In this document: piece after piece, positions 57,513 to 64,000 of the stretch
Layout of the letters: every line of letters starts with the position of its first letter
How positions within the stretch are numbered: position 1 is the first letter of the stretch
Assembly (NCBI RefSeq): GCF_016863515.1
Contig: NZ_BOPA01000032.1
Span: 1 to 64,000, forward strand
From: Micromonospora gifhornensis
Lineage (GTDB): Bacteria; Actinomycetota; Actinomycetes; Mycobacteriales; Micromonosporaceae
Direction: 5' to 3'
Length of the DNA stretch: 64,000 nucleotides
Made by a program: the position numbers and the translations under genes
The notes under the pieces: generated by a model
Databases searched by the model: none
Seen by the model: the letters and a program-made list of their open reading frames with translations, nothing else
What the model was told of the DNA's origin: nothing

Positions 57513-57830
57513 GTGCCGCTCCCGTCACTGACCCCCGAGCAGCGCGCAGCCGCGCTGGAGAAGGCTGCGGAGATCCGCAAAGCCCGTGCCGAGCTGAAGG
57601 AGCAGCTCAAGCAGGGCAAGACCACCCTCGGAGCCGTTCTCGAACGGGCCGAGTCCGACGACGTCGTCGGCAAGCTCAAGGTGTCGGCCGTGCTGCAGGC
57701 GATGCCGGGCATCGGCAAGATCCGGGCCACCCAGATCATGGAGAAGCTCAAGATCGCCGACAGCCGTCGCCTGCGTGGCCTCGGCGAGCAGCAGCGCAAG
57801 GCCCTGCTTGGGGAGTTCGCCGCCAACTGA
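57513..57830 (+). CDS. mihF: Integration host factor, actinobacterial type (mIHF)
   Basis: A 105-residue nucleoid protein from GTG 57513 with TGAGGAG. An N-terminal helix (PEQRAAALEKAAEIRKARAE) precedes a helix-two-turn-helix domain (VVGKLKVSAVLQAMPGIGKI) that binds DNA without sequence similarity to E. coli IHF. Needed for phage integration and nucleoid organisation in mycobacteria and Streptomyces. The 171-bp upstream gap has TTGACC (57403-57408) but no clear -10. Confidence 0.94.
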   Translation: MPLPSLTPEQRAAALEKAAEIRKARAELKEQLKQGKTTLGAVLERAESDDVVGKLKVSAVLQAMPGIGKIRATQIMEKLKIADSRRLRGLGEQQRKALLGEFAAN

Positions 57831-57855: not shown

Positions 57856-58389
57856 GTGAGCTTGGATGACGAGACGCGCCCGGCGGCTCGGCTCACTGTC
57901 CTGGCTGGCCCATCCGGTGCCGGTAGGGAGAGTGTCGTCGAGTTGGTCCGGGCGCGTTCTCCGTCCGTGTGGCGGCCGATTCCGGTCACCACCCGCCCCC
58001 GACGTGAGGGCGAGCTCGACGGGGTCGATCGCCATTTCCTGACCCCTGAGCAGTTCGACCGGCGGCTGGCCGCCGGTGAGCTGCTGGAGTGGAGCCGGCT
58101 CGGTGCGTACCGCCGGGGCACCGAGATCGCCCCGCTGCGCAGCCGCGTCGCCGCCGGAGTGCCGATCCTGCTGCCCCTGGACCTGGACGGGGCGCTGCTG
58201 GTGCGGGCCGCCTGGCCGCAGGCCCGCCTGGTGTTGCTTCACCCACCCGGTCGGAGTCCGGCTCCGACCGTGACGGCGGCCTTCGACCACGCCGTGTCGT
58301 ACGACCGCACTGAGCAGGTCGTGGACGAACTGGTAGGATTCATCGGTTCTTCCTTCCTGGCTCCGGCCCGGCCGCGTCCGCGCGGTTGA
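57856..58389 (+). CDS. gmk: Degenerate guanylate kinase-like protein
   Basis: A 177-residue protein in the gmk position of the mIHF-gmk-rpoZ operon. It keeps the start [27 protein letters not shown] and the later fold, but: the P-loop reads GPSGAGRES with Arg24 instead of the invariant Lys; the conserved GMP-contact tyrosines are changed (GVDRHF, AYRRGT); and the ~28-residue lid with its catalytic arginines between the LLHPPGRS and AFDHAV segments is missing. It is ~25-30 residues short for the family. It probably is not an active guanylate kinase and may bind GMP or (p)ppGpp or be structural (inference). A second gmk is expected elsewhere in the genome. Confidence 0.8.
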
Positions 58390-63562: not shown

Positions 63563-64000
63563 GTGACCGTTCGTCAGTCGATCGTCTTCAACGGTGACCT
63601 CGGTAGCGGCAAGAGCACCGTGTCGGTGGAGATCGCCAAGCGGTTGGGGTTGCGCCGGGTCAGTGTCGGCGACCTCTACCGGCAGATGGCTCAGGAGCGT
63701 CAGATGACCGCGCTCCAGCTCAATCTGCACGCCGAGCTGGACCAGGCCGTCGACGGCTACGTCGACCAGCTCCAGAGCGACATCGCCGCCTCCGGTGAGA
63801 GCCTCGTCATGGACTCGCGGCTGGCCTGGCACTTCTTCACCGACGCGCTCAAGGTGCACATGATCACCGAGCCGGGTGAGGCGGCCCGCCGGGTGCTGCT
63901 GCGCCCCTCCGGGCCGGCGGAGAGCTACACCTCGTTGGAGGAGGCCAAGGCCAAGCTCCGGGAACGCAGCGAGAGCGAGCGGGGCCGGTTCCTGGTCCGC
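63563..64000 (+). CDS. Cytidylate kinase-like P-loop kinase (3' end missing)
   Basis: The open frame runs from GTG 63563 (AGGGGTGG upstream) off the window edge, giving 146 residues. Walker A is VFNGDLGSGKSTVSVEIAK (Lys at residue 17), followed by VSVGDLYRQMA as in CMP kinase-like proteins and MDSRLAWHFF. These single-domain proteins resemble cytidylate kinase but are not proven to use CMP. The C-terminus is lost, so length and full family cannot be judged. Confidence 0.8.
   Translation, partial: MTVRQSIVFNGDLGSGKSTVSVEIAKRLGLRRVSVGDLYRQMAQERQMTALQLNLHAELDQAVDGYVDQLQSDIAASGESLVMDSRLAWHFFTDALKVHMITEPGEAARRVLLRPSGPAESYTSLEEAKAKLRERSESERGRFLVR

What the first reader, a model, noticed from the sequence alone, without database searches (positions are those of the whole stretch)
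57856..58389. Guanylate kinase in the essential rpoZ operon has lost its P-loop lysine and lid
Seen: P-loop GPSGAGRES has Arg for Lys; two GMP-contact tyrosines are replaced; the lid with catalytic arginines is deleted; the protein is short. Known: all three are required in guanylate kinases. Inferred: a pseudo-enzyme keeping the locus, perhaps a GMP/(p)ppGpp sensor, with the true gmk elsewhere.
Basis: partly seen in the sequence, partly recalled or inferred. Interest (0 to 1): 0.8.

Follow-up and report, generated by a model that had tools for sequence, protein, structure and literature searches.

The report
Dead guanylate kinase and its replacement
In this Micromonospora-type bacterium and its relatives the gene for guanylate kinase, an enzyme thought to be indispensable, has decayed into an inactive-looking protein, and a different kinase of an archaeal type, encoded a few genes away, appears to have taken over the job.

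Summary
The 177-aa protein at 57856-58389 has a guanylate kinase (Gmk) fold with Arg for the P-loop Lys, two Tyr replaced by Arg, and no lid. It is the only Gmk match in a 99.99%-complete genome. All 38 genomes of the genus sampled score alike, Plantactinospora keeps Lys and Tyr but lacks the lid, and Dactylosporangium lacks the gene.

Instead a conserved NMP-kinase-like protein, related to the archaeal-type "(d)CMP kinase" model TIGR02173, starts at 63563 and runs off the window. It is present in 65 of 65 family genomes with degenerate or absent gmk (16 of 135 others). Outside the family it is in 7 of 9 Actinomycetota with no gene over the Gmk cut-off and 0 of 386 with one. The two exceptions lack rpoZ too; one of the seven has a remote Gmk-like protein. 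In all seven it lies between mihF and rpoZ, the gmk slot. Bacterial cmk is retained.

Best reading: repeated non-orthologous displacement of gmk, leaving a maintained pseudo-enzyme in Micromonospora. No activity was measured. The family is also a candidate for the unidentified archaeal GMP kinase.

The parts
57856..58389 (+). gmk*: lid-less, P-loop-Lys-less guanylate kinase homologue, 177 aa
   Evidence: AlphaFold2 mean pLDDT 82.8; the Foldseek matches shown are guanylate kinases or their relatives
57907..57933 (+). degenerate P-loop GPSGAGRES; Lys position is Arg24 (57925-57927)
58030..58032 (+). first GMP-phosphate Tyr column (Y50, recalled yeast numbering) is Arg59
58114..58116 (+). second GMP-phosphate Tyr column (Y78, recalled yeast numbering) is Arg87
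58252..58257 (+). junction where the 25-residue lid segment of canonical relatives is missing (after residue 133)
57513..57830 (+). mihF (actinobacterial integration host factor), upstream border of the gmk slot
   Evidence: NF041260, 142 bits
58440..58703 (+). rpoZ (RNA polymerase omega), downstream border of the gmk slot
   Evidence: TIGR00690
58718..59944 (+). coaBC
   Evidence: TIGR00521
60018..61211 (+). metK
   Evidence: TIGR01034
61265..63250 (+). priA (approximate start)
   Evidence: NF011452, 961 bits against a 980 cut-off
63563..64000 (+). candidate replacement GMP kinase (TIGR02173-like P-loop kinase with a C-terminal extension), first 146 of 327 codons; the gene continues to base 64546 of the contig

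Best explanation
Non-orthologous gene displacement of an essential enzyme. A P-loop nucleoside-monophosphate-kinase-like protein of the archaeal-type '(d)CMP kinase' family (TIGR02173-like, here with a ~130-aa C-terminal extension) entered these genomes and took over the step GMP + ATP -> GDP + ADP. The ancestral gmk was then free to decay in steps: lid lost first (Plantactinospora), then P-loop Lys and GMP-contact Tyr (Micromonospora/Salinispora), or the gene deleted outright (Dactylosporangium). In deep-branching actinobacterial families the new kinase lies in the vacated slot between mihF and rpoZ. In Micromonospora the remnant is still a maintained protein, most likely a non-catalytic one that keeps part of the guanine-nucleotide site. 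SHOWN by computation: the degeneration, the absence of another PF00625 gene in the own genome, the strict co-occurrence, the slot position, the retention of bacterial cmk. INFERRED: that the new kinase phosphorylates GMP, that the remnant is catalytically dead, the order of events, and any present function of the remnant.
For: (1) Only one PF00625 match in the own genome. 65 of 200 family genomes have a degenerate, aberrant or absent gmk (by score; part of them aligned); in 6 of 6 Dactylosporangium loci that reach mihF, mihF and rpoZ are 200-559 bases apart with no gmk. (2) The kinase model A1 hits 65 of these 65, and 16 of the other 135 (Fisher p 9e-38 ignoring relatedness). (3) In 398 Actinomycetota, A1 (E<=1e-12) hits 10: 3 Micromonospora and 7 genomes of 4 other families, none of the 7 with a gene over the PF00625 cut-off; 0 of 386 genomes with such a gene. 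The independent curated model TIGR02173 gives the same 10 at E<=4.4e-23, next best 3.7e-11. The two gmk-less genomes without it also lack rpoZ. (4) In 7 of 7 such genomes the gene lies between mihF and rpoZ. (5) Bacterial cmk is over its cut-off in 23 of 24 genomes tested, every kinase-bearing one included, so the kinase does not replace Cmk. (6) Tree of 71 genomes: dead gmk needs 10 changes, at least 6 forced by well-supported branches; in 6 independent pairs the kinase goes with dead gmk (5.9 of 6 on average), sign test median p 0.031. (7) Kinase residues 1-120 evolve at dN/dS 0.05-0.13, like housekeeping neighbours. (8) Among 14 control genomes PF00625 rings in the 10 bacteria, TIGR02173 in the 4 archaea only.
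Against: No enzyme was assayed. TIGR02173 is named (d)CMP kinase, and the Micromonospora copy scores 82 bits, under its 102.1 cut-off. 16 family genomes carry a divergent kinase copy beside an intact gmk, so presence does not imply displacement. One of the 7 genomes outside the family, G463, encodes a remote Gmk/PhnN-like protein with P-loop Lys and a lid Arg; it scores 36.6 of 263, 33.8 of 156 and 32 of 160 bits on the nearest models and lacks the E69, Y50 and D98 residues, but its activity is unknown. In families f63 and f76 the kinase P-loop reads GSGTS/T, without the Lys, which weakens any argument from a lost P-loop Lys alone. Without G463 and the debatable G085 only 5 independent pairs remain (4.9 of 5, p 0.0625). 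Substrate specificity cannot be read from sequence, and the kinase model has mean pLDDT 54.5.
Confidence: 0.83

Rival explanations
1. The remnant is still the GMP kinase, with an unusual active site or a partner that supplies a lid; the TIGR02173-like kinase does something else.
For: Frame kept with dN/dS 0.46 and 52 of 62 copies of identical length; R38, E69, D98 invariant in 75 sequences.
Against: P-loop Lys, both Tyr and the whole lid are lost together; Dactylosporangium has no gmk at all; the other kinase is always there when gmk is dead.
Confidence: 0.05
2. The new kinase is a second CMP/dCMP or broad NMP kinase, and GMP is phosphorylated mainly by a further, unseen enzyme (for example a polyphosphate kinase or an adenylate kinase of wide range).
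For: Family name (d)CMP kinase; nucleotide kinases of wide range exist (PMC10248530, passages).
Against: A normal Cmk is retained in these genomes; the strict link is to gmk loss, repeated in at least 6 changes, and in 7 of 7 deep cases the gene is in the gmk slot.
Confidence: 0.12
3. For the remnant only: gmk* has no function and is a slowly decaying pseudogene kept in frame by translational coupling in the operon.
For: dN/dS 0.46 is far above neighbours (rpoZ 0.016, mihF 0.06, metK 0.08, pyrF 0.18); C-terminal truncations in a few genomes and a frame-shifted middle part in G209; deleted in Dactylosporangium.
Against: No length change in 52 of 62 copies; Y50 to Arg fixed and R38, E69, D98 kept in 75 of 75; dN/dS below 1 in every 30-codon block (0.39-0.51).
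Confidence: 0.3

Closest known systems
Bacterial guanylate kinase Gmk (PF00625, TIGR03263; e.g. M. tuberculosis 1znw/1s4q)
   Same: gmk* has the fold (Foldseek E 2e-16 to 1znw), the same operon slot, and keeps the R38, E69 and D98 columns
   Different: no P-loop Lys, no lid, both Tyr replaced by Arg; below the TIGR03263 cut-off
Guanylate-kinase-like domains of MAGUK proteins (non-enzymatic; recalled; entries listed)
   Same: a Gmk fold kept without catalysis
   Different: eukaryotic scaffold domains; gmk* is a stand-alone bacterial protein and no partner is known
Archaeal-type (d)CMP kinase family TIGR02173 (cyt_kin_arch)
   Same: window kinase aligns over residues 8-177, 82 bits; 5 of the 10 genomes hit score over the cut-off
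   Different: lies in the gmk slot or operon of genomes that keep bacterial cmk; the Micromonospora form has a C-terminal extension and is under the cut-off
Unidentified archaeal GMP kinase (PMC4177761, passages)
   Same: 4 of 4 control archaea lack PF00625 and have TIGR02173
   Different: that paper proposes AK6-like enzymes; the present candidate is TIGR02173, untested

Membership tests
Guanylate kinase (enzyme) | P-loop GxxGxGK[ST] Lys | tested here: not met
   Arg24; 0 of 75 distinct Micromonospora sequences have Lys
Guanylate kinase (enzyme) | lid with catalytic Arg residues | tested here: not met
   25 residues absent
Guanylate kinase (enzyme) | Tyr pair at the GMP phosphate | tested here: not met
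   Arg59 and Arg87
Guanylate kinase (enzyme) | score over TIGR03263 cut-off (160.45 bits) | tested here: not met
   95.4 bits
Guanylate kinase (fold) | Gmk fold | tested here: met
   PF00625 59.6 bits over the 25.2 cut-off; AF2 and Foldseek
Guanylate kinase (enzyme) | phosphorylates GMP | not testable with these tools
   needs assay
TIGR02173 archaeal-type (d)CMP kinase | score over 102.1 bits | tested here: not met
   window kinase 82.1; G261, G463, G467, G526, G558 are over it
TIGR02173 archaeal-type (d)CMP kinase | P-loop NMP kinase domain | tested here: met
   NGDLGSGKST; PF13238 and PF13189 over cut-off
TIGR02173 archaeal-type (d)CMP kinase | acts on (d)CMP | not testable with these tools
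   needs assay
Non-orthologous gene displacement of gmk | complementary distribution of the two genes | tested here: met
   kinase in 65 of 65 and 10 of 12 (the 2 exceptions lack rpoZ too) against 0 of 386; but 16 family genomes hold both and G463 has a remote Gmk-like protein
Non-orthologous gene displacement of gmk | newcomer in the same genomic slot | tested here: met
   7 of 7 genomes outside the family; in Micromonospora 5.5-6.2 kb downstream instead
Non-orthologous gene displacement of gmk | same reaction catalysed | not testable with these tools
   needs assay
ParB_N/sulfiredoxin-like domain (C-terminal extension of the kinase) | significant profile match | tested here: inconclusive
   ParB_N E 0.06-0.21 in 2 and ParBc_2 E 0.06-0.14 in 3 of 5 proteins, none over cut-off; Spo0J E 0.52

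The most novel reading that the evidence does not exclude
TIGR02173 is, at least in part, a GMP kinase family: it is the long-missing archaeal GMP kinase (perhaps dual CMP/GMP) and has displaced bacterial Gmk in actinobacteria several times over. In Micromonospora the dead Gmk, with lid removed and two new arginines at the phosphate site, has become a guanine-nucleotide ((p)ppGpp) binding regulator.
Probability: 0.25. Interest if true: 0.95.

Novelty: new variant of a known kind. Interest (0 to 1): 0.85.

Why it matters
Gmk is treated as a universal, essential bacterial enzyme and drug target (recalled). Here a large antibiotic-producing genus and several other lineages seem to have replaced it. 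The stages of decay are still visible, and the likely replacement is named for another reaction. It gives a concrete candidate for the archaeal GMP kinase gene, which a 2014 survey says was unidentified (PMC4177761, passages). It also means that (p)ppGpp control of GTP through Gmk (PMC6783271, passages) should be absent or rewired in these organisms. It bears on automatic annotation: the remnant matches guanylate kinase models, while the candidate enzyme matches (d)CMP kinase or AAA models.

Tried and rejected
Rejected: a second gmk in the own genome (1 match among 20 scored candidates). Rejected: a sequencing error or single-strain oddity. Considered: that the kinase replaces Cmk; rejected. 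Considered: that gmk-less genomes without the kinase are counter-examples (G225, G466); both also lack rpoZ, and G466 has no Cmk over the cut-off, so they are taken as assembly gaps. G063 (77% complete, neither gene) and G057 (canonical gmk split by a frameshift, no kinase) were left among the 135 'others'. Weakly scoring gmks were checked for hidden decay in 28 genomes: 25 are whole with P-loop Lys and lid Arg, G511 is split over contig ends and G339 over a frameshift, and G463 turned out to have a remote Gmk-like protein. Considered: that the 16 extra kinase copies are self-resistance genes in antibiotic clusters; gene calls around 7 of the 16 showed no shared cluster by eye, not pursued. 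Considered: a fold for the C-terminal extension; only weak ParB-like hits and pLDDT under 50 in most of it. No tRNA or Rfam match in the window. PHROGs gave only weak kinase hits. Literature: 10 answered searches listed no paper on gmk loss in these bacteria; subscription papers are mostly not held.

Weak points of the counts: Fisher values ignore relatedness. Counting G085 as dead is a judgement (Walker-A Gly to Ala, scrambled lid). In one search, 21 coaBC rows and one gmk row were dropped because the aligned range held a stop; therefore used pyrF to choose pairs (59 genomes, 1141 pairs). The Nei-Gojobori method is crude in high-GC genomes, so only the comparison between genes is used.

Full report
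OBSERVATION. The reading frame at 57856-58389 (+) is real and as described. It matches PF00625 at E 4.3e-16 over positions 2-124 of 182 only and scores 95.4 bits on TIGR03263 against a cut-off of 160.45. The P-loop is GPSGAGRES, with Arg24 in place of Lys. The two Tyr columns are Arg59 and Arg87. The 25-residue segment that forms the lid in Actinoplanes (with its RRL, RGT and RRL arginines) is missing after residue 133. AlphaFold2 on an alignment of 28 sequences gives mean pLDDT 82.8, and the 50 Foldseek matches shown are guanylate kinases or Gmk-like domains. Site numbers Y50, Y78, R38, R41, E69, D98 are recalled from the yeast enzyme and come from no call.

NO SECOND GMK. PF00625 finds one match in the own genome (6.8 Mb, 99.99% complete), this one. 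In 200 genomes of the family, drawn evenly from a larger group, the 38 of the genus each have a single match, and it is of the weak kind (E 1e-10 to 3e-17). The named loci show the genus to be Micromonospora in the broad sense, with Salinispora and Verrucosispora. A second, partly overlapping sample of 31 genomes of the genus has the orthologue in 31.

STAGES OF DECAY. Weak or absent matches also occur in other genera of the family: g32 (Plantactinospora; 7 genomes), g18 (6), g10 (3), g20, g36 and one genome of g23. G085 of g11 has an aberrant copy. g44 (Dactylosporangium; 7) has none. That is 65 genomes with the 38 of the genus; they were classed by score, and part of them were aligned. Ten Plantactinospora rows (7 genomes, three of them seen twice) keep the P-loop Lys and both Tyr but lack the lid. 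All 75 distinct Micromonospora sequences have lost the Lys, the first Tyr (75 Arg) and the second Tyr (73 Arg, 1 Cys, 1 His). In 6 of 6 Dactylosporangium loci that reach mihF, mihF and rpoZ stand 200-559 bases apart with no gmk match; a seventh contig starts at rpoZ and cannot tell.

THE REMNANT IS KEPT. Of 62 named loci with the gene, 52 have exactly 177 codons. Over 1141 pairs of genomes of the genus, dN/dS of gmk* is 0.46, between 0.39 and 0.51 in every 30-codon block. Neighbours give 0.016 (rpoZ), 0.06 (mihF), 0.08 (metK) and 0.18 (pyrF). R38, E69 and D98 are kept in 75 of 75, and Y50 is Arg in 75 of 75. So selection is relaxed but present, and the site has a new fixed arginine. Against a function: dN/dS is high, two genomes have a stop near the C-terminus, G209 has a middle part in another frame, and Dactylosporangium lives without it.

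FINDING THE REPLACEMENT. I asked which small P-loop kinases distinguish genomes with dead gmk. PF13238 over 19 genomes gave a strong match (E 4.3e-16 or better) in 10 of 10 genomes with dead or lost gmk, and in 1 of 9 with a normal gmk. In the own genome it begins inside the window, at 63563, after priA, and continues past the window end to contig base 64546. The protein has 327 codons: an NMP-kinase domain with P-loop NGDLGSGKST and a C-terminal extension. NCBIfam's nearest model is TIGR02173, archaeal-type (d)CMP kinase, at 82.1 bits against a cut-off of 102.1; Pfam gives AAA_18 and Cytidylate_kin2 over their cut-offs. By sequence, solved structures match only short stretches or weakly. The AF2 model is poor overall (mean pLDDT 54.5; kinase-domain blocks 51-89), and the Foldseek hits shown are mostly cytidylate, shikimate and adenylate kinases and unassigned kinases.

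CO-OCCURRENCE, FAMILY. A profile of 12 kinase domains (A1) hits 81 of the same 200 genomes at E<=1e-30: all 65 with degenerate, aberrant or absent gmk, and 16 of the other 135. The 16 are more divergent copies beside a normal gmk; the 12 of them fetched lie at scattered places. In g11 only G085, the one with the aberrant gmk, has the kinase. Of the three g23 genomes only G023 has it, the one with the lid-less gmk. In the 62 named Micromonospora, Salinispora and Plantactinospora loci where both genes are seen, the kinase starts 5.5-6.2 kb downstream of the start of gmk*. Of the other 18 named loci, 13 end too close to the kinase to tell, 4 are Dactylosporangium and 1 is Actinoplanes.

CO-OCCURRENCE, PHYLUM. 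In 398 Actinomycetota of at least 95% completeness, 8 have no PF00625 match and G463 has only a sub-threshold one. A1 at E<=1e-12 hits 10 genomes: 3 Micromonospora and G261, G443, G447, G463, G467, G526, G558, from families f36, f53, f63 and f76. None of the 386 genomes with a gmk over the cut-off (Micromonospora set aside) is hit. The curated model TIGR02173, made independently of this work, gives the same 10 at E 4.4e-23 or better and then a gap to 3.7e-11. The two gmk-less genomes without it, G225 and G466, also lack rpoZ, which all 14 control genomes have; I take them as assembly gaps. The sub-threshold match of G463 is a 283-aa protein with P-loop Lys and a lid Arg, remote from both Gmk and PhnN models (36.6 of 263, 33.8 of 156, 32 of 160 bits) and without the E69, Y50 and D98 residues. 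It may be another phosphotransferase, but it makes G463 less clean than the other six. Weakly scoring gmks of 27 kinase-less genomes were checked: 25 are intact, one is split by contig ends and one by a frameshift.

POSITION. In all 7 of these genomes the kinase lies between mihF and rpoZ, the gmk slot. In f53, f63 and f76 it is on the operon strand; in the three f36 genomes on the opposite strand; in G467 one further gene stands between it and rpoZ. This is the strongest hint of function apart from the counts.

NOT A CMK SUBSTITUTE. The bacterial (d)CMP kinase model TIGR00017 is over its cut-off in 23 of 24 genomes tested, including every kinase-bearing one; only the incomplete G466 fails.

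INDEPENDENCE. On a tree of 71 genomes from MihF, RpoZ, CoaBC and, where present, MetK (3 further rows dropped), the dead state needs 10 changes, at least 6 forced by well-supported branches. In 6 independent pairs the kinase goes with dead gmk (5.9 of 6 on average over 200 pairings, never the other way); sign test median p 0.031, the least that 6 pairs can give. Leaving out G463 leaves 9 changes and the same 6 pairs; leaving out G085 as well gives 8 changes and 5 pairs, p 0.0625. Several deep rows have long branches, so the count of changes is approximate. The kinase tree does not follow the species tree closely within the family, which suggests transfer, but its support is moderate.

ARCHAEA. 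Among 14 control genomes, PF00625 rings in the 10 bacteria and TIGR02173 in the 4 archaea only. [quoted passage not shown] The present data put TIGR02173 forward as another candidate. The bacterial Cmk model is over its cut-off in 10 of the 14 controls; the answer does not say which, but if they are the bacteria, the archaeal protein might have to serve both CMP and GMP. This part is a conjecture.

MECHANISM. Shown: the decay of gmk, lack of another gmk in the own genome, co-occurrence, slot, retained cmk, strong constraint on the kinase domain (dN/dS 0.05-0.13 for residues 1-120). Inferred: the kinase makes GDP; the remnant does not; decay followed the arrival of the kinase. That normal Gmk of several phyla is inhibited by (p)ppGpp, which binds its active site, is from PMC6783271 (passages).

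CAVEATS. No biochemistry. The kinases of f63 and f76 have GSGTS/T in the P-loop, without the Lys, so if they are active the Lys is not strictly needed in that family, and a lost Lys alone is weak evidence of death; for gmk* the argument rests on Lys, Tyr pair and lid together and on outright deletion in Dactylosporangium. 16 family genomes keep both genes, and G463 has a remote Gmk-like protein. Ten searches of the held library listed no paper that reports the loss of gmk in these bacteria; it lacks most subscription journals.

VERDICT. An archaeal-type kinase, whose gene begins at the end of this very window, is the probable GMP kinase.

Noticed in passing
L228 5198-5722, L229 4937-5479, L230 4971-5615: TIGR02173-type kinases of families f63/f76 have a P-loop GSGTS/T without the Lys.
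   Followed up: no
L279 862-1713 (G463): A remote Gmk/PhnN-like 283-aa protein with a hydrophobic C-terminus, with P-loop Lys but without the GMP-specific residues; activity unknown.
   Followed up: partly
L232-L243 (kinase near the middle of each): Divergent, often C-terminally shortened copies of the kinase at scattered loci in genomes that keep a normal gmk (Actinoplanes and others); function unknown. 12 of the 16 were fetched, 7 looked at gene by gene.
   Followed up: partly
L094 8131-8547 (contig 64130-64546, just outside the window): C-terminal extension of the kinase with a conserved VDGHRRLSAALR-like motif, weakly ParB_N-like; could be a nucleotide-binding regulatory domain.
   Followed up: partly
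L082 1813-2341 (G209): gmk* with its middle part in another reading frame: two compensating frameshifts or an assembly error.
   Followed up: partly
L064 (G057): Canonical gmk split by a frameshift in a kinase-less genome; the rpoZ match there is also partial, so probably read errors.
   Followed up: partly
L224, L225, L226: In family f36 the kinase lies in the gmk slot but on the strand opposite to mihF and rpoZ, so it was inserted rather than grown out of the operon gene.
   Followed up: partly
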